NCBI GenBank assembly: GCA_022059125.1
Contig: JAEUWY010000020.1
Span: 1,984,001 to 2,048,000, forward strand
Direction: 5' to 3'
Length of the DNA: 64,000 nt
Source of the DNA: Corynespora cassiicola
Lineage: Eukaryota > Ascomycota > Dothideomycetes > Pleosporales > Corynesporascaceae
The notes beneath the pieces are model-generated. The model was not told where the DNA came from and made no database searches. It worked only from the letters and a program-made list of their open reading frames with translations. The translations under genes and the position numbers were made by a program. Within the stretch, counting starts at the first letter, position 1, and every line of letters begins with the position of its first letter. Below are positions 22,388-44,973 of this stretch, one piece after another.

Positions 22388-25300
22388 TTACGGGCCGGGA
22401 TATCCTATTTCTTCTCGGTTATCATCAATGATCCGACCATACCTATTTTTGTCAGTTGGTGCAATACGTCCACGTCTGCTGGTGAAAGAACTTACTCTAG
22501 GAGAAGTCTGAAAAACCAGGCCTCAAAGTCCACATTACGCAGGACTGTAGCCTGCCATTCTGTGCTCCTCTCTGCAATCTCTTGCGCTTTGCGCTCTCCG
22601 AGCGAGCCGCCATTGCCATCCTTTGTCTTGCCCTCGGCGATGGCGGCTTCGTTTTGATATCCGCCAAACCATCGTACCAGATCAAGGTGCTCATCACCGA
22701 TTAATGATAGCGGAACGTAATGAACCCAAGGTTTCAACCACTCCTGGTGCCACTCCCTAAACATGGCCATCTTGTATGTCAGACTGTTGCTTTTGAGGAA
22801 GGAATAAAAGCGACCCGAGAAAGCATTGCCATCCATGTCGAGCAAGTGCTTGTAGCCCCAGGCGTCTTGGCCATCAGCCCGCTCAACGATTTCAAAGAAC
22901 TCTTTCTGAGCGTCGCAGTCTCCTGGGTCGCACTGGCCAATGTGGCTAAATTTCACATCAACAAGTTCCTTGAAATCCTTCCTCTCGATCTCTTCGACTT
23001 TGAAATCAGGGCTTTCGTCTTTGCCCTTATTGATCAAGGCATTGACTTTGTCTAGAGCATTCAGGCGTCGGACGACGTGTTGTCGGTGTTGCCTTCGCCA
23101 CCCTCCATTACGACTGAAGCCACCAGTAGTCGATCCTCGCCAGTAGATGCTATTGTTCTTCACTTTCCAATCGGAATCGCGGTTCTTGTCATATCCGACT
23201 CGGCCGTCCCAATACCACGGGCTGGGATATAAGATGTCCTGGAAGCTCGAGATTTTAGACTGGGAGAAGATGGGTGTAAGCTCATGGGTGATGCTGAAAG
23301 CATTGGGCCGTTCGAAAAAACCAAACCTGGATGACAAGGACGGAGAGTTACAGATGTCGGAAAAAGCGGTGTGGTTGTAAACGTAGTTGAGTGGGCCTGC
23401 AGCATATGCTGTGAGGTTATCTGCGGCGTGCTCATCGTAATACCGAGCTGGACTGTTGATTGGACAGGACAGCCGCGCATGAGTCCAGGTCTGTTGATGA
23501 GCAAATCGGTTGAACTTGCTGGTCTTGACCTCCTCAAAACGCTTACCGTCGCTGACATCAGAGGGTCTGGAGGAGAAGGAGTTTCGCGGTGACTTGACCT
23601 TCATGGCGGCAGGTAGTGCCTCTTCTTGCGCCTTTGAAACAAGCAGAGAGAGCTCGTCATTGGGAACCACAACACGAGGCTCATCATGAATGTTGAAACC
23701 AAGATCCATGTCCGGAAGGTATTGCACGAACTCCTTCATCATACCCGTAGTGGCCTGTTGCTGCCATTCTTGGCCGCCTTCGACTTTGACAACGTTGCCG
23801 TCTCGAATCATGATCCCGACCAGGGCACTATCATCATGGCCCAAGGCCTGTCGTATACGAGTTCGAATAGTTTCAGGTTTGACAGCCCAGAAGGGTAATA
23901 GAGACTGAGTGATTGTGTCGAATTCGTCGATCAGCACGACGTTGTTGCGAACGGCAAACTCATACCACTTGTCGAAATGTGGGGGAGGCGCTATACCGTT
24001 TCGACGACGATATTCCTTGACTGCAGCCTCAAGGCTCTTCGACTGCGACTTTAGCAGGCTGTCGAACTCCTTCTCGGCTGTATCGATTAGTTGAGCGGCG
24101 GGATGCCCCTTCTTCAGGTCCATTGGAACGGGGTGGCGTGGCTTTTCTGGAGCAGAAACATGGAAAGTGGGCACACCGTTGGCTGAGAAATGGTAGCCTC
24201 CAGTAGTATATCGAAGTAGGAAAATCCCAATGGAAAGCGCGGTAATTCCGACAATGACGCGTCTGAGCCGTATAGAGCCCCGAATTTCGGCCCCAGGGGC
24301 AGAGGAAGATGCCGACAAAAAGAGAAGAGAAGCAGCCCCGCAAATGAATGTGAACCATGCACCAGAAAAGGAAGGAACTAGGTTCAACCTAGCGAACATG
24401 TACGAGAATAAAGAGAGAAACGAGATATGCACGGCGCTCTGCTGGGTAAGCTATGTGAGGTCAGCCAGTGTGATTCGTTGCAGGGACACGAACGTGGCCA
24501 AGACTTACTATGAGAAAGGTGAGGACGTTGATGATAACATTGGCACAGATGGTCAGCACGACCTGGAGTATAGTCTGGTGATAATACAAGGTCTTCCAGT
24601 CGCCCCGAAACTGCCTGTATATGGGCTCCCATGTTATGGCGTCGGGGCTGATGGCTGGCTCGACAAAATACATGGCCAGCCCGCACAGCAACGTCATGGC
24701 AGCAGCGACGTCACGTAGCGAGGCCAGCTGCTGCTCCTTCTTAGCGCCAACCAAGGAGCTGCGTCGCGAAAATGTGCCATTTGCAGACATGAACCCCCTT
24801 CTTCCCGTATCGGCATCATCTTTGGCGGACTTGAGGGCGCCCTCGAACAGGACCAGGCCCGCGGCGGCGAAGATGACGCTGCTCAAGCTCAGGGCAGCGG
24901 TGGACGTGGTGTTGTAGCGGGTTGCAAGGGCGGCGCAGGCGGAGACGGTGACGGTGGCCAGCAGCCTCAAAGATTTGGCAGGCGGCTTCTTCTCGGAGAC
25001 CGAGTCCGAGTCGTCGAGGAGGGCCATGGTCGGGAGGGCAACGTGTCTGGAGAAGAACTCGTTTTCGGCAGCGAGGGCAACGAAGATGGGGAGGAACCCC
25101 TGAAGCTGGGTCAGACGTATAGAGGCTACAATGCAAGGCACATACCTTTGTTGACCACACGCCGGGCTTGTCGCACGCAGCGCGGTCACACAGCTGGGCC
25201 AGGGCGAGGAAGCCGCCGGCCAGCCAGCTGGTGCCTCTGCTCCGGGCGCTGCCTGTGGGCCACAGGCCGGCACGAAAGGCGGTGGGGATCCATATCACAG

Positions 25301-25445
25301 CCCACGAAACAGCGGCGACGAGCAGCGAGTGGTGGACGGGCGTGTGGATCTGGGCGGCAGTCGCGAGCAGGACGAACAGCAGCGGCAGGGTGAGGTGGTT
25401 CTTTTTGCGCGCATAGTCGGCGATGGCAGCGACGGCCGGGTGCAT
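22388..25445 (-). CDS. Large membrane glycosyltransferase family 90 (CAP10/CAP59-like)
   Basis: GT90 enzymes transfer xylose, glucose or related sugars; Cryptococcus Cap10 and Cxt1 are relatives acting in the secretory pathway. Four exons (25146-25445, 24509-25099, 22496-24450, 22388-22442) encode 966 residues. The first 400 or so contain many hydrophobic helices (for example LTLPLLFVLLATAAQI and AAMTLLCGLAMYF), so the protein is polytopic, unlike the single-anchor animal POGLUTs. The catalytic half shows the GT90 pattern NNSIYWRGSTTGG, CDPGDC, YKHLLDMDGNAFSGRFYSFL and LTYKMAMFREWHQEWLKPWVHYVPL. I added a last small exon (22388-22442): the GTAAGT after LLLE is a donor and splicing gives LLLEYGRIIDDNRE, which fits the family end better than the immediate stop. 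Confidence 0.88.
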
Positions 25446-27382: not shown

Positions 27383-27390
27383 AAAAAAAA
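27383..27390 (-). terminator. Pol III terminator of tRNA-Lys
   Basis: Eight T's on the minus strand, 18 bases past the mature 3' end, form a standard RNA polymerase III stop signal. Confidence 0.8.
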
Positions 27391-27408: not shown

Positions 27409-27548
27409 AGCCCGATGCGGGGCTCGAACTGGTAATTGTTAGGATGAATTGTAACTTGTTGTTCAGGATGTTAAACGTACCCCGCAGCCTTGAGATAACC
27501 TCTTATGGTAGTAAGAGTCTCACGCTCTACCGATTGAGCTAACCAGGC
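27409..27548 (-). tRNA. tRNA-Lys(CUU) with two introns, one in the T arm
   Basis: The 140-nt gene folds to a 73-nt tRNA after removal of two introns. The acceptor stem GCCTGGT pairs with ATCGGGC (seven pairs, two G-U), and the discriminator is U73, as in yeast tRNA-Lys(CUU). The D arm GCTC/GAGC is perfect and includes an A box (TAGCTCAATCGG). The anticodon CUU is at 27513-27515. Intron 1 (27497-27511, 15 nt) is canonical, after A37, and its TAAGAG pairs with the anticodon loop CTCTTA. Intron 2 (27429-27480, 52 nt) lies exactly between nucleotides 53 and 54. It starts GTACGT, contains CCTAAC 10-15 bases from its end and finishes CCAG. With it removed, the T stem GCGGG/CCCGC is perfect and the loop is TTCGAGC. 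A T-run terminator follows. Confidence 0.92.
27429..27480 (-). other. Spliceosomal-type intron in the T arm of tRNA-Lys
   Basis: This 52-nt insertion has all three mRNA intron signals: donor GTACGT (the same donor as intron 1 of the eIF2-beta gene here), branch motif CTAAC, and acceptor CCAG. Its length matches protein-gene introns in the window (45-60 nt). It splits the tRNA between G53 and T54. Its final AG makes the downstream B box read AGTTCGAGCCC, one base from consensus. Splicing by the spliceosome is inferred. Confidence 0.8.
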
Positions 27549-39870: not shown

Positions 39871-42677
39871 GGATGATAAAAGGAGGTTTATCAGATCATG
39901 ACTGGAACGGGCTGAGGCCATGGCCGATTTCCTGCTCGTACACCGCAAGTCGTCCGGCAGCCTGTCCATCTGCGGCGGCGCTGTAAGTTCAAGACGGCGC
40001 CTCGCATTCCCACGGTCCTGGACAGGTGCACCAGTGGCAGAGGAGCAGATGCTAGTGCCTAGCGGGAAAGACGAATTGCGGTGTGTACTGGTACATGGCC
40101 CGATGCCTGGTAGACGTCCTATGAGTAAGAGCGAGCTACGGCGGATGCAAGTCGAGATGTTGGTTGGAGGTGGTGAGCAGCGCTTTGGCAGCGGAGCGGT
40201 CCGAGCGTAGCGCGGGGCCCACGTCTCCAGCTAGCCAGAGCGAGAAAAGACGAATTTGAATCGAAAGCCGCGTGTTATCAGCTTGCGCGTCTGCGCCTGC
40301 GATCGGAGAAGCATTCTGGAAGGTTGCAGTGCATGGGGTGCACTGAGCGGGCTGACGGGCACGCTCGCTGGTGGCGCGAGGGTTGGATGCGGGCTACCCA
40401 GGAGGCATGGAGACGGGTGTAGTGCCGCAGTGACAGCATGCTGGCTCGTGTTGCGCTCGCGATGTGTTGGTGGGGAAAAGGCTCGCACACCAGCTGCCAC
40501 TTCCAGAGGTCAATCAGCCAGGCAGACTACGGCAGTCAATCAATCGATCCATTGGTGCCCATCTCCGTCGCGCGGCGAGGCCCGGGGGCCACTGAGAGTT
40601 GCAGCAGAGGCAGATCAAATTAAACCACGGCGAGCAAAGTGGCCTAGTGTTCCGCAGCTGGGCGGGCGGCCATGCCACCAAGCAGCGTCATCGAGCAATA
40701 GGGCCCTAGGGCCCCACATTGTGTATGCTCATGTTGCCCAGGAGCCTCTGTCAATGCATGCTGCAGCCCGTCCCTCGCTGGTCCTGCCACGATCGAGAAG
40801 GGAGGCGAATCACTCCATCCATCACCAGGAGAGCTCCTTCGCGTAGAGCAACGTGTGAGGCAGGGCGTTTCAAGATCAAGAATAGCCCCTTTGCCCGTAC
40901 CGACATGGCCATACGAACAGGCGAGGATCCAAAACGCCTGGGTTTCGCAAACGTATTTAGCAGAGAAGCGAGGTGTGCCTGACGAGCGGGGTATCAGAGA
41001 GAAAGAACAGTCGAGGTCCTTTGTCGCGAGGCCCCGCCAGGCACGGCATGCCTCAGGCCACATGAGATATTATCCTCAGCCTGCCAATGGCAGCGCGAGC
41101 AAGGCGAAATCCCTCAGGGCTAAGCCAAAAGCGAGGGCCTGGGTCGGGTAGGGAGGCGAGGCGAGCCGTTGCGCTGTGTATTGCAGTGATTCCCGAAAGT
41201 CGCCCGGCTGGAAAAGGGTTGGCTGGCCATCGGAGGCGGAACTTGTCCAAGGATGATGGCCTCCCTCCCTGTCGTTCCTGGAGGCTTGCGGAGACAAAGT
41301 ATTAGAAATTGGAAGACAATGCGACTGACTCGCGCTTCGCCTTCGTTCAATCGATGGGCTGATGTCGAGACCGATGGCGTAGCATTTGGTTGGGAGCAGC
41401 CCAACCATGCCCTCCCCGTCCTTTGCTCACGCAAAACGCTGCAGAGCCAGTTCACCAAGGTACGTCAGGATGCGCACACCCCGGCCCTGCACTAGAGCTC
41501 TGAGCACGGCCAGGCTAGGCACGAAACATACATTCTGCGTCGATCAAGAAACAAAGATCCGCGCGTGCACGTTTCCTCTCCGAAAATGATTCTCAGGGGC
41601 CGCGAGCATCAAACGCAGCCGTGGCTCGCTACCTGTGTATCCACTTCCTTCCAACGGCCGTCCATTCTGTTTTTCGTCCTTGCACCGAGCTGTGGCGCCG
41701 CAAGGGTCTACGAGCGAATACCGAAAGTTTAAATGCGCACAGATGTGGCAACTGACTAGAAAATGCCCTCGAGCTTGGGGTTCGGATAGGGCGATTCATG
41801 GGTCGAGCAATCGGGTTTGCCCTTTTTGGCCGCAGAGATTAGATCCTGTGGAGAACAATATGTTGCGCGCATGATGAATGCATTTGCGCCATCTCCATCT
41901 CGCGATGATTCCGGGGGACCAGGCGGTGGCATCTGTGCATGAATATTGGAAGGCCATTCCGCGGCCTTTCTCGTGTTTGCGCGGATAGGAGGGCTAGGAG
42001 GGTTACTTCACGGGGACTAACCAGGTATTCTTCCCATTGTAAGCTCCACGGGAGAAGGATCGAGAGGACAAGCAGTCAGCAGGCTCAGATCATGCACGTC
42101 CGTCGCCCGTTCATGCAAACTCACGCCTTGGTAGTTCCGACGTCGCACACCGCGCTGGACGACAACGACCTGGTCAAGCTTACAGGCCCACACTTAACAG
42201 AGGGCTCTAATGCTACACGTCCTGGTGGGGGATCAGCTCCTCTGGGGTGCGGGCGTCATTTGCCCTGGTTCAAGTCGACTGCTGACTGCGTTGCCGTACG
42301 GCCCGTCTATTCCTAGACTTTGCTGTGCTCCGATGCAAGGACCCGCGCAGCTTGCAGCTCGCAGCGTGTTGATGGAGAGATGACGCTGTTGTGGTGTCAG
42401 AGGTCGACTGTGCAGCCACGGCGCAGTACACAGGCTGCGACGGTGTCCGTATGGGTGCTTGGGACTGAGTTTGCAGATCCGGTGGTCTGGATTGCAAATG
42501 CTGCGCAACTGATGGGCGTGCAATGATCAACGCTGAACTGGCAGCGGTTGGGGTGTCTTGAGCAGAAGCAAAGCTCGGGTCGCGGCCTTCGGGCCGATGC
42601 GCGTCGCTTGCTCCTCAGCTGGAGTGCCGCGACTCGGATGCCAAGGAGCATCAAAAAGCAATATGGAATGCTGCAGC

Positions 42678-42714
42678 AGGAACAGGAACAGGAACAGGAA
42701 CAGGAAAGGGAACA
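42678..42714. repeat. (AACAGG)n short tandem repeat
   Basis: Six units of AACAGG, the fifth altered to AAAGGG, occupy about 37 bases. Confidence 0.75.
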
Positions 42715-43045
42715 GGGTGATGATCTTGATTCAAACAGCGTGTTGAAAGGAGAAGGTGGCTGCGGTGGTTATGGCGATGCTGCTTGGCATAGAGCAAGGT
42801 TTTCCAGCGCGGAAGCTGCCGCCAGGAGGGTGTCATAAGCACAAGGTAACGCCGTGAACCTTGGAAGGGACCGTCTGCATGCGGATAGATGTTGACGTTC
42901 CTGTCTTGAAATATCAATCTGGGGGCGTGGTCACCCTCGGTCTTCAGCCATCCATATCGTAGCAATGCCTCCGCCAACACGCCAGCAAAAAAAAAAAGAC
43001 GCGTCAACTACATGCTCTGCACGTCTTACACTGTTTACAAGATGC

Positions 43046-43052
43046 AAAAAAA
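43046..43052 (-). terminator. Pol III terminator of tRNA-Ile
   Basis: Seven T's on the minus strand, about 14 bases past the mature 3' end, form an RNA polymerase III stop signal. Confidence 0.8.
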
Positions 43053-43066
43053 GAATCATCCTCGTT

Positions 43067-43208
43067 AGGTCAATGCGGGGGTCGAACTATTCAGGTTGTT
43101 AGTGACTTGTTGATGAGACATTGTTGGTGGTGATGCTTACCCCACGACCTTGGCGTATCATAGCAGAAGCTATTAGCACCACGCTCTAACCAACTGAGCT
43201 AATCGACC
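43067..43208 (-). tRNA. tRNA-Ile(AAU) with two introns, one in the T arm
   Basis: The 142-nt gene folds to a 74-nt tRNA after removal of two introns. The acceptor stem GGTCGAT pairs with ATTGACC. The D arm is GCTC/GAGC with the A box TAGCTCAGTTGG. The anticodon AAU (read as IAU) is at 43172-43174. Intron 1 (43157-43170, 14 nt) sits after A37, where ATAGC can pair with GCTAT. Intron 2 (43087-43140, 54 nt) lies exactly between nucleotides 53 and 54: it starts GTAAGC, contains CACTAAC and ends ATAG. Its removal gives the T stem GTGGG/CCCGC (one U-G) and the loop TTCGACC. The discriminator reads U73, whereas fungal tRNA-Ile normally has A73. A T-run terminator follows. Confidence 0.92.
43087..43140 (-). 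other. Spliceosomal-type intron in the T arm of tRNA-Ile
   Basis: This 54-nt insertion has donor GTAAGC, branch motif CACTAAC about 13 bases before the end, and acceptor ATAG. It lies at the same 53/54 position as the insertion in tRNA-Lys. Its terminal AG leaves the downstream B box as AGTTCGACCCC. The two introns differ over most of their length but share CAACAAGT followed by a Y-A-C. Confidence 0.8.
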
Positions 43209-44973
43209 GAGTACTGGTTTGATGAGTGGAATCTCAATAACAAAAGAGATATTCATGTGCAAAGCCAGCTCCCACTGTGTGCGGATGGGCCGGCGGCTAG
43301 GTGGGGCTCTCGTCACACGCGGTGTCACGGTGCCAAGGCGCGCTAACTGTGTACGCCGCAATACGAAGATGGCCCATCGAGGTCAAACAGACCTCTTTCA
43401 CGACCCACGCTGCAAGGAACGCAAGTCAGGGGTGACTGCGAGCGACCCATCAGGCAAACTCTATCCACACCTCACACATCCTAGACGACTCATTCGCAGT
43501 CCGTATCCGAAGTTCAGACCTTCTACATTCAACCAGTCGCGTCGAGGGCGCCCAATCTGGCAAATGTATCCGACGGCGACACGATTCGCCAGTTGCACAG
43601 CGGCCACCAACATTCGGTCCTATCCGCCTCGCAGCAGTCCTCATGCACCACGCGCAGTTACACAGCATACATATGCAATCATGTGACTTGCGGCAAGCCT
43701 TAACTACACAACACGCGCTGCTGGGCCCGGCTACTAGCCAACGGTCAATGTCTCACTCGGCAGAACGGCCAACGATTACAAGGGCCCCGACATGCACGGC
43801 TTCTGCTCGGCATCACACAGGACTATTTTAGCATTGCCACTACGTAGAGATGCCGGCGCCATGTTCGGCTCTTGGGCATACGGCCCGACTAGACGTCAGG
43901 TACAGACCTGACAGGAACGCGACTAACAAGAAAAAGGGTCTTGTATCAGTGACATGGCGTCTCCGCGCATCCTCTAACAGGAGCTCTAGACGCAAGATTA
44001 CAAATGAAATGGAGCTACATGGCCGGCGGAGCAGCGCCATGATTCACAAAACGTCACAAAGCGCAGGTCCACGTTTTTCCTGCACCTCCCTGGAGGAGGA
44101 TCATTCCGTGGCCGAGGTAGAAGAAGTGGGCTCACCAAGTCTTCAGCCAATTCGCACACGTCGGACTTGTGGCCTATGATCTTCGTGGTGGAAGATCTCG
44201 TTCCCACCCCATCCACAAGGACCCGGGCGATTTGAGTTTCGCGCCTCGGCCTGAGGCTCATACCCACAGTGTCTTGAAGTCGAATGCCATCAGCGGTGAT
44301 AAGACCACCACCACGGCCTCACGGGATCTTCCCTCCGTCGAGGCCGGACAAACGCACAAGGTCGCAACATGTTTCGGCACCGGGCCGTACCGGTACCAAT
44401 TCAACAGCCAGCGCGCGCTCGGGAGGTGAGGGAGCGGCACAGCCAGCTGATTGGACCCCTGATTTCCCTTTTCTTCACTCCTTCCGCTGCCGAAGGGAAG
44501 CTCATTTTGTTGACGGGCCGAATGACAATCATTGCGACATCCAACAAGGCAGGAAGGCCGGCCGGGCGGAATGGCTGGCTCTGACGATGCGATGCGATGC
44601 CTCAATCCTTGGGCATCCTTGCACACAGACAGCAGCGTTCGGACCGTGTACCGAACGGTCAGTTGGTTGTGCTGCGTACGTAGGCCTCCACGTCGTCTGC
44701 GAATTGCAAGGAGAAACGGCTTACCCGGCACTCTCAGAGGCTATTTTGAAACCACTCGTGACGTACAAGTGCGAGTCTAACGGCGGGTCAACTGACTTGC
44801 GGTTGAGGCTGGGAACATGGCTGAATGACCACGCGCTGGTATATCGAGCGGCAGCAGCACCAGCAGCCGTGGTCCCGCTCGGTACACGTCGGCACAGCCC
44901 AGCCACTCCCACTCGCCGCCCTCTCTCGCACAGGCACGCACGCGCACACTCTCCCTGGAGGCAAGATGACGAT

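What the first reader, a model, noticed from the sequence alone, without database searches (positions are those of the whole stretch)
43067..43208. tRNA-Ile gene with the same kind of intron at the identical 53/54 position
Seen: tRNA-Ile(AAU), 16 kb away and of unrelated isotype, also carries a canonical intron after position 37 plus a 54-nt insertion exactly between nucleotides 53 and 54, with GTAAGC, CACTAAC and ATAG. Two of two tRNA genes in the window share the site, so this is not a chance insertion or a single pseudogene. Inference: T-arm introns may be widespread in this genome, a systematic feature of its tRNA set.
Basis: partly seen in the sequence, partly recalled or inferred. Interest (0 to 1): 0.95.

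Follow-up and report, generated by a model that had tools for sequence, protein, structure and literature searches.

The report
Spliceosome-type introns inside fungal tRNA genes
In this fungus, twelve genes for three transfer RNAs carry a short messenger-RNA-type intron at one exact spot in the T-arm, and because every histidine tRNA gene found carries it, the cell can probably make histidine tRNA only if its mRNA-splicing machinery cuts that intron out.

Summary
A tRNA-Ile(AAU) gene at 43208-43067 (- strand) has an ordinary 14-nt intron at 37/38 and a 54-nt GTAAGC...CACTAAC...ATAG insertion exactly between nucleotides 53 and 54. Genome-wide I found 12 genes of three isotypes with such an insertion: His(GUG) 3 of 3, Ile(AAU) 3 of 5, Lys(CUU) 6 of 7. 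The 52 tRNA genes read from the Rfam hit list, the seventh Lys gene among them, have ordinary T-arms. All 12 insertions are 48-59 nt, begin GTANG, hold CTRACA with the presumed branch A 10-14 nt before the end, and end YAG. ARAGORN calls a tRNA from joined exons in 12 of 12 genes and from unspliced ones in 0 of 12. Between copies, exons are 96-100% identical, introns 61-90%. No full bulge-helix-bulge was found. AG|TTCRANNCC keeps a complete B box. No uninterrupted tRNA-His gene was found within 3 mismatches. Best explanation: U2-type spliceosomal introns in Pol III tRNA genes, with Lys and Ile precursors needing both splicing machineries. No RNA data and no related species were available. Only three isotypes are known to carry them; the survey was incomplete.

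The parts
43067..43208 (-). tRNA-Ile(AAU) gene with two introns (5' end at 43208; T73 at 43067)
   Evidence: joined exons are called tRNA-Ile(aat) with a 14-nt intron by ARAGORN, the unspliced gene is not called
43157..43170 (-). ordinary 37/38 intron of tRNA-Ile, 14 nt
   Evidence: ARAGORN on joined exons; coordinates
43087..43140 (-). T-arm intron of tRNA-Ile, 54 nt, between positions 53 and 54, GTAAGC...CACTAAC...ATAG
   Evidence: model R1 (built with it) 62.1 bits at 43075-43145
43098..43102 (-). CTAAC branch-point motif (presumed branch A at 43099, 12 nt before the intron end)
   Evidence: branch role inferred
43067..43086 (-). 3' exon: T-loop, T-stem 3' strand, acceptor 3' strand and T73; with the intron's AG it forms AGTTCGANNCC, a complete B box
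   Evidence: sequence; B-box role inferred
43046..43052 (-). T7 run, presumed Pol III terminator of tRNA-Ile
43219..43224 (-). CATCAA upstream element shared with many tRNA genes of this genome
27409..27548 (-). tRNA-Lys(CUU) gene with two introns
   Evidence: Rfam RF00005 36.7 bits
27497..27511 (-). ordinary 37/38 intron of tRNA-Lys, 15 nt
   Evidence: (ARAGORN on joined exons)
27429..27480 (-). T-arm intron of tRNA-Lys, 52 nt, between 53 and 54, GTACGT...TCCTAACA...CCAG
   Evidence: model R1 (built with it) 63.9 bits at 27417-27485
27438..27442 (-). CTAAC branch-point motif of the Lys intron
   Evidence: branch role inferred
27383..27390 (-). T8 run, presumed Pol III terminator of tRNA-Lys

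Best explanation
The 53/54 insertions are short U2-type spliceosomal introns inside nuclear tRNA genes. Pol III transcribes the gene from its A box and from a B box that stays complete although the intron sits inside it: the intron's 3' AG followed by TTCRANNCC reads AGTTCRANNCC, as in ordinary tRNAs with A52-G53. The spliceosome recognises GTANG, CTRACA and YAG and removes 48-59 nt, which joins T-stem to T-loop. The separate 37/38 intron of Lys and Ile is removed by the tRNA splicing endonuclease and ligase. His has only the T-arm intron. Since all three His genes found carry it, removal must be efficient for the cell to read His codons. Shown here: the sequence architecture, its recurrence, exon constraint, restoration of the tRNA, and the absence of an uninterrupted His gene at the sensitivity used. 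Inferred: transcription, spliceosomal excision, and the order of the steps.
For: (1) Signals: 12 of 12 introns start GTANG, hold CTRACA (11 CTAACA, 1 CTGACA) with the branch A 10-14 nt from the end, and end YAG, at 48-59 nt. Three introns of a GT90 gene in the same window, placed by homology, are 46, 58 and 53 nt with GTATGT/GTAAGT/GTAAGT, CTGAC and YAG, branch A 9-11 nt from the end. The fungal branch consensus RCTRAY and the branch-to-acceptor range of 6-36 nt are stated in PMC5832005 (passages). (2) The intron columns invariant in 12 of 12 are the four of GTANG, the four of CTRAC and AG. (3) Exons 96-100% identical against introns 61-90% between copies of one isotype. (4) Joined exons are called as tRNA with the expected anticodon in 12 of 12, unspliced in 0 of 12. 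T-stem pairs across the intron form in 59 of 60 cells. (5) His 3 of 3 interrupted; a 3' search and a junction search, each allowing 3 mismatches, find only the same three interrupted genes. (6) Upstream CAYCAA within 45 nt in 10 of 12 intron genes, 23 of 52 ordinary genes and 3.5% of background stretches; the 2 without are second members of tandem pairs. T5 or longer within 60 nt downstream in 11 of 12, against 48 of 52 ordinary genes and 1 of 3 uninterrupted Ile/Lys genes. (7) No full 4-bp BHB helix in 12 of 12 at five shifts.
Against: No RNA evidence was available. The 5' splice sites are weaker than GTAAGT: +4 is not A in 9 of 12 and +6 is not T in 8 of 12. The base before CTRAC is a purine in only 7 of 12. 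His introns are predicted to fold into hairpins, one holding the branch motif in or partly in its loop, which ordinary fungal introns need not do; their energies are not clearly below shuffles (z -0.7 to -1.6). Spliceosomal splicing of Pol III transcripts is known to me chiefly for U6, and the 9 U6 matches here look intronless (48 of 2690 candidates scored). The Ile gene at C6:2579012 has a T50-T64 mismatch in the restored T-stem. Absence of TTTT in the 12 introns does not discriminate, since the three GT90 introns lack it too. No related species could be searched.
Confidence: 0.86

Rival explanations
1. The insertions are non-canonical tRNA introns cut by the tRNA splicing endonuclease (BHB or relaxed BHB), as at 53/54 in some archaea and in red-algal and nucleomorph tRNAs; the GT...CTAAC...AG match is incidental.
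For: 53/54 is a listed site of archaeal non-canonical introns, and eukaryotic non-canonical tRNA introns exist (PMC4090602, passages). The 37/38 introns of the same Lys and Ile genes show that the enzyme acts on these transcripts. In His the central helix has 3 of 4 pairs at two shifts.
Against: No full 4-bp central helix in 12 of 12 introns at five alignment shifts. All 3 Ile and 5 of 6 Lys introns fold no better than shuffles. A BHB intron would have no reason to keep GTANG, CTRACA and YAG while the rest diverges.
Confidence: 0.08
2. The interrupted genes are silent or decaying copies, and the real supply comes from uninterrupted genes.
For: T-arm insertions in eukaryotic tRNA genes have been taken for pseudogenes (PMC4090602, passages). 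Ile has 2 and Lys(CUU) has 1 uninterrupted copy.
Against: All 3 His genes found are interrupted, and no other His gene turned up in three searches. Exons are kept at 96-100% while introns drift. Upstream elements and T runs are kept. Silent copies would not be expected to keep branch points and splice sites.
Confidence: 0.03
3. The loci serve as TFIIIC-binding DNA elements or as unspliced tRNA-like RNAs, and the insertion is never removed.
For: The B box is intact in the DNA without splicing.
Against: Does not explain the splice and branch signals, the conserved acceptor and anticodon arms, or the His supply.
Confidence: 0.03

Closest known systems
Spliceosomal introns of U6 snRNA genes in fungi (e.g. 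fission yeast)
   Same: mRNA-type intron in a short Pol III RNA, spliced during its maturation (PMC10484740, passages; PMC5832005, passages)
   Different: U6 is part of the spliceosome and its intron lies near the catalytic nucleotides, explained by reverse splicing; here the host is tRNA, in three isotypes, at one T-arm site, and the 9 U6 matches of this genome look uninterrupted
Spliceosomal introns of fungal U3 snoRNA genes
   Same: short GT-AG introns with RCTRAC branch in a small structured RNA, varying between paralogues of one species (PMC5832005, passages)
   Different: another RNA and another site; that 2017 paper names U3 and U6 as the only small structured RNAs known to be often interrupted
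Non-canonical introns at 53/54 in archaeal tRNA genes
   Same: identical position, sometimes together with a 37/38 intron (PMC4090602, passages)
   Different: those use the bulge-helix-bulge or its relaxed forms and are cut by the splicing endonuclease; no full BHB here, and GTANG/CTRACA/YAG present
Non-canonical tRNA introns of nucleomorphs and Cyanidioschyzon merolae
   Same: eukaryotic tRNA genes with introns outside 37/38 (T-arm in nucleomorphs) and, in Guillardia theta, up to three introns per gene (PMC4090602, passages)
   Different: 3-24 nt in the G. theta nucleomorph, BHB-dependent in C. merolae; not described there as GT-AG with branch point
Ordinary eukaryotic 37/38 tRNA introns
   Same: present in the same Lys and Ile genes
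   Different: other site, length and signals; the tRNAscan-SE 2.0 paper states that eukaryotic tRNA genes are limited to one intron (PMC8450103, passages)

Membership tests
U2-type spliceosomal intron | 5' splice site GTRNG and 3' splice site YAG | tested here: met
   12 of 12
U2-type spliceosomal intron | branch-point motif (fungal RCTRAY) 6-36 nt before the acceptor | tested here: met
   CTRACA in 12 of 12, branch A 10-14 nt from the end; the R before CTRAC is present in 7 of 12 (A in 6, G in 1), the other 5, all Lys, have T or C; consensus from PMC5832005 (passages)
U2-type spliceosomal intron | length within the host's mRNA intron range | tested here: met
   48-59 nt against 46, 58 and 53 nt for three introns of one GT90 gene; one gene compared, and the 46-nt intron is less surely placed (P0003 aligns through part of it)
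U2-type spliceosomal intron | removed through a lariat by the spliceosome | not testable with these tools
   no RNA data
tRNA endonuclease (BHB) intron | two 3-nt bulges separated by a 4-bp helix at the junctions | tested here: not met
   0 of 12 introns with a full helix at shifts -2 to +2; best 3 of 4 pairs, in His
functional nuclear tRNA gene | restored cloverleaf with matching anticodon | tested here: met
   12 of 12 joined-exon genes called by ARAGORN with the expected anticodon (37/38 intron not marked in the Ile gene L102); 0 of 12 unspliced; one T-stem mismatch in the Ile gene of C6
functional nuclear tRNA gene | internal B box and downstream T run | tested here: met
   AGTTCRANNCC in 12 of 12; T5+ within 60 nt in 11 of 12, the twelfth being first of a tandem pair
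functional nuclear tRNA gene | transcribed and charged | not testable with these tools
   no expression data
group I or group II self-splicing intron | catalytic core with a match to a known family | tested here: not met
   no such Rfam family reaches its gathering score in the window, and nothing at E up to 5 in 42500-43700; the other 10 genes were not scanned; 48-59 nt is also too short (general knowledge)

The most novel reading that the evidence does not exclude
A eukaryotic nuclear tRNA set in which one whole isotype, His, depends on the spliceosome, and in which two further isotypes are spliced twice by two unrelated machineries. The T-loop joint 53/54 acts as a repeated landing site for spliceosomal introns in Pol III genes because it is a place where GT-AG insertion leaves the B box complete. 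Translation of His codons would then be coupled directly to splicing capacity.
Probability: 0.7. Interest if true: 0.93.

Novelty: new variant of a known kind. Interest (0 to 1): 0.88.

Why it matters
Nuclear tRNA introns are generally taken to sit at 37/38, one per gene, and to be removed by a dedicated endonuclease; the tRNAscan-SE 2.0 paper describes eukaryotic tRNA genes as limited to one intron (PMC8450103, passages). Here the spliceosome would be needed to make a tRNA, and in Lys and Ile both splicing systems would act on one RNA. It gives a natural test of whether Pol III transcripts without a normal mRNA cap and tail reach the spliceosome, and of why introns settle at particular sites. 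It also shows a possible blind spot: ARAGORN of the 12 unspliced genes, and the Rfam list held no His gene (63 of 1206 candidates scored), so an annotation of this genome could miss tRNA-His altogether. My literature searches found no description of it (judged by title and abstract start of the rows listed, which were capped, six exact phrases such as 'spliceosomal introns in tRNA', returned 0 papers). They cover open-licence PMC papers only.

Tried and rejected
BHB introns: tested on 12 introns at five junction shifts, no full helix. Self-splicing introns: no Rfam match at gathering score in the window, none at E up to 5 around the Ile gene. Assembly artefact or single pseudogene: made unlikely by 12 copies at different places with different flanks. 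Ile discriminator T73 as a sign of decay: rejected, all 5 Ile genes found have T73. Introns of one origin copied between isotypes: not supported by sequence, cross-isotype intron identity is 0.50-0.67 by gapped alignment, but such short introns cannot exclude it. Absence of TTTT as a sign of Pol III: dropped as evidence, because the three GT90 introns lack it too. Relatives elsewhere: exact patterns for the Lys 5' half in viral and genome contigs and for His in viral contigs gave 0 matches; these collections are not fungal, so this says nothing about related fungi. A whole-gene alignment A1 placed the 5' half of His badly and was dropped in favour of A2. U6 introns: 9 U6 matches of 97-105 nt, no sign of an intron. 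A paper search on intron lengths was used only to find PMC5832005.

Coverage limits: the Rfam tRNA search scored 63 of 1206 candidates, so it is not a full tRNA census; 2 of its 53 matches (C5:5181831 and C15:1069644) were never fetched. The pattern gave 15 places, of which 11 are T-arm introns and 4 are not tRNA; its reversed-pattern control gave 35, so the pattern alone proves nothing. The pattern gave 35 rows (control 11), 18 distinct places by my count, 11 of them T-arm introns; the other 7 give no match to the model. The twelfth gene (C6, CTGAC branch) was seen only because it lies beside another.

Full report
WHAT IS THERE. The tRNA-Ile(AAU) gene of the finding is at 43208-43067 on the minus strand. 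It reads 5'-GGTCGAT... with anticodon AAT, a 14-nt intron at 37/38 (43170-43157), T-stem GTGGG, then 54 nt GTAAGC...CACTAAC...ATAG (43140-43087), then TTCGACC, CCCGC, ATTGACC and T73. The tRNA-Lys(CUU) gene at 27548-27409 has a 15-nt intron at 37/38 and a 52-nt insertion at the same joint (27480-27429). ARAGORN with the tool's settings finds neither. Rfam finds the Lys gene at 36.7 bits and not the Ile gene.

ORGANISM. The window lies in contig C20 of a genome of 44,353,003 bases in 23 contigs. The GT90 gene of the window is 60-77% identical to the 120 homologues listed (of 1525), and the best named hit is Melanomma pulvis-pyrius (71%). As I recall their taxonomy, the top named hits are Pleosporales, so this is most likely a pleosporalean ascomycete; the species was not identified.

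GENOME-WIDE COUNT. Patterns for the branch-to-T-loop part and for the T-loop-to-terminator part, and 5' exon searches allowing 3 mismatches for His, Ile and Lys(CUU), were read in sequence. His(GUG): 3 genes, all 3 interrupted at 53/54. Ile(AAU): 5 genes, 3 interrupted. Lys(CUU): 7 genes, 6 interrupted. That is 12 interrupted genes of 15. From the Rfam hit list (53 matches, 63 of 1206 candidates scored), 52 distinct ordinary genes were read, one of which is the uninterrupted Lys(CUU) and one perhaps mitochondrial. With the 2 uninterrupted Ile genes and the 12 interrupted ones, 66 tRNA genes were seen, 12 of them (18%) with T-arm introns. Two Rfam matches were not fetched. By ARAGORN's names and my reading no Phe, Tyr, Pro or elongator Met gene is among them, so the survey is incomplete. 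A 73-position model of T-stem, intron and T-loop run over the window and 72 of 110 fetched loci (229 kb) at E up to 10 finds the 12 genes it was built from and nothing else; the genome itself could not be searched with it.

HIS IS THE KEY CASE. A search for the intact His T-arm and acceptor (24 bases, up to 3 mismatches) and one for the anticodon-to-T-loop stretch across the joint (26 bases, up to 3 mismatches) each return only the same three interrupted genes. A more divergent or unassembled uninterrupted tRNA-His gene is not excluded, but on this evidence the fungus cannot make a normal tRNA-His without removing the insertion.

INTRON ANATOMY. All 12 are 48-59 nt, start GTANG (GTAAGC in 3 Ile, GTACGA/GTACGT/GTATGA in 6 Lys, GTAGGT in 3 His), carry CTRACA with the presumed branch A 10-14 nt before the end, and end YAG. 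In the alignment of T-stem plus intron plus T-loop the intron columns invariant in 12 of 12 are GTA, G at +5, CT, A, C of the branch motif, and AG; one further column, a C near the 5' end, reaches 90%. Three introns of the GT90 gene in the same window, placed by homology to P0001, P0003 and P0007, are 46, 58 and 53 nt with GTATGT/GTAAGT/GTAAGT, CTGAC 9-11 nt before the end, and YAG; the 46-nt one is less surely placed, because P0003 aligns through part of it. Published fungal values are RCTRAY and 6-36 nt (PMC5832005, passages). The T-arm introns thus look like these mRNA introns, with CTAAC instead of CTGAC in 11 of 12 and a weaker 5' site (+4 not A in 9 of 12, +6 not T in 8 of 12).

SELECTION ON THE EXONS. 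Between copies of one isotype, tRNA exons are 96-100% identical, T-arm introns 61-90% (gapped alignments, so somewhat inflated). The T-stem halves, separated by the intron, pair in 59 of 60 cells, with changes on both sides between isotypes; those changes are inherited within isotypes, so they show a tRNA fold rather than repeated events. Joined exons give the expected tRNA in 12 of 12 cases and the unspliced genes in 0 of 12.

TRANSCRIPTION SIGNALS. The insertion sits inside the B box, but AG|TTCRANNCC leaves a complete box of the A52-G53 kind that ordinary genes here also use (Val-CAC, Ser). A CAYCAA element within 45 nt upstream occurs in 10 of 12 interrupted genes, 3 of 3 uninterrupted Ile/Lys(CUU) genes, 23 of 52 ordinary ones and 3.5% of background stretches; the two without are the second genes of tandem pairs. 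T5 or longer lies within 60 nt downstream in 11 of 12, 1 of 3 and 48 of 52 respectively. None of the 12 introns holds TTTT, which would suit a Pol III transcript, but the three GT90 introns lack it too, so this does not discriminate.

WHAT IT IS NOT. A scan for the bulge-helix-bulge motif gave no full central helix in any of 12 introns at five shifts; the best, in His, had 3 of 4 pairs. All 3 Ile and 5 of 6 Lys introns fold no better than shuffled sequence. His introns are predicted to form hairpins, one with the branch motif in or partly in its loop, but at z -0.7 to -1.6 against shuffles.

MECHANISM. Most likely Pol III makes the pre-tRNA, the spliceosome removes the 53/54 intron, and the endonuclease and ligase remove the 37/38 intron where present. 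The order is unknown. One guess is that the T-arm intron goes first, in the nucleus, since the tRNA elbow needed by end-processing enzymes cannot form before. Why this joint: insertion exactly after G53 keeps the T-stem strands and the B box, and G53|T54 is conserved in most tRNAs (general knowledge), so much the same target is offered by many isotypes. Whether the three isotypes gained the intron independently, for example by reverse splicing as proposed for U6 (PMC10484740, passages), or one copied from another cannot be told from introns this short (cross-isotype identity 0.50-0.67). The uninterrupted Lys(CUU) gene has, with the intron joints used here, the same mature sequence as two interrupted ones (T-loop TTCGACC), which fits precise loss or the ancestral state. 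The uninterrupted Ile genes have another T-stem (ATGGG/CCCAT), so the Ile genes form two subtypes.

LITERATURE. The 2014 review of tRNA introns (PMC4090602, passages) says that T-arm insertions in eukaryotic tRNA genes were mostly found in one of many synonymous genes and taken for pseudogenes, with nucleomorphs and C. merolae as exceptions, and lists 53/54 among archaeal non-canonical sites. The word 'spliceosom' does not occur in its main text. The tRNAscan-SE 2.0 paper (PMC8450103, passages) states that eukaryotic tRNA genes are limited to one intron. PMC5832005 (passages) names U3 and U6 as the only small structured RNAs known to be often interrupted by an intron; its abstract calls U3 a Pol III gene, whereas I recall Pol II for yeast U3. 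Six exact phrases for spliceosomal introns in tRNA returned no paper; among the rows listed by the other searches (lists capped at 15 or 20) I saw none by title or abstract start. Subscription papers and preprints are not in that library, so prior description is possible.

VERDICT. The reading as a real, recurrent T-arm intron is strongly supported, and that it is spliceosomal is well supported by sequence but unproven by RNA. 'Widespread in the tRNA set' holds for three isotypes only, as far as seen.

Noticed in passing
L106/L107 (C6:1323047 and C6:1323200) and L101/L102 (C20:1493944 and C20:1494065): Tandem tRNA pairs, Lys-Lys 17 nt apart and Ile-Ile 30 nt apart, without a T4 run between the two genes, probably transcribed as one dimeric precursor; in the Ile pair the first gene lacks and the second has the T-arm intron.
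   Followed up: partly
L096, L097, L098 (His introns): All three His introns are predicted to fold into hairpins, the 3' one holding the CTAACA motif in or partly in its loop; CCTC/GAGG in two copies becomes CCAC/GTGG in the third. Three sequences are too few to test covariation, and the energies are not clearly below shuffles.
   Followed up: partly
L099, L101 against L100, L102, L103: Two subtypes of tRNA-Ile(AAU) by T-stem: ATGGG/CCCAT without and GTGGG/CCCGC with the T-arm intron (one copy CCCTC with a mismatch). All five have T73 instead of the A73 I would expect in eukaryotic tRNA-Ile (recalled).
   Followed up: partly
genome G000, upstream of tRNA genes: A CAYCAA element within 45 nt upstream of 23 of 52 ordinary and 13 of 15 His/Ile/Lys(CUU) tRNA genes, against 3.5% background; one Lys(CUU) gene is in both sets.
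   Followed up: partly
G000: 9 places: Nine U6 snRNA matches of 97-105 nt (48 of 2690 candidates scored), two pairs within 1 kb, all apparently uninterrupted; sequences not fetched.
   Followed up: no
window 22391-25424 (-): GT90/CAP10-domain gene with three short introns by homology, closest named relatives in Pleosporales as I recall their taxonomy.
   Followed up: partly
L014 (C18, 127,203 bases): A tRNA-Met of different make-up on a short contig, possibly the mitochondrial genome.
   Followed up: no
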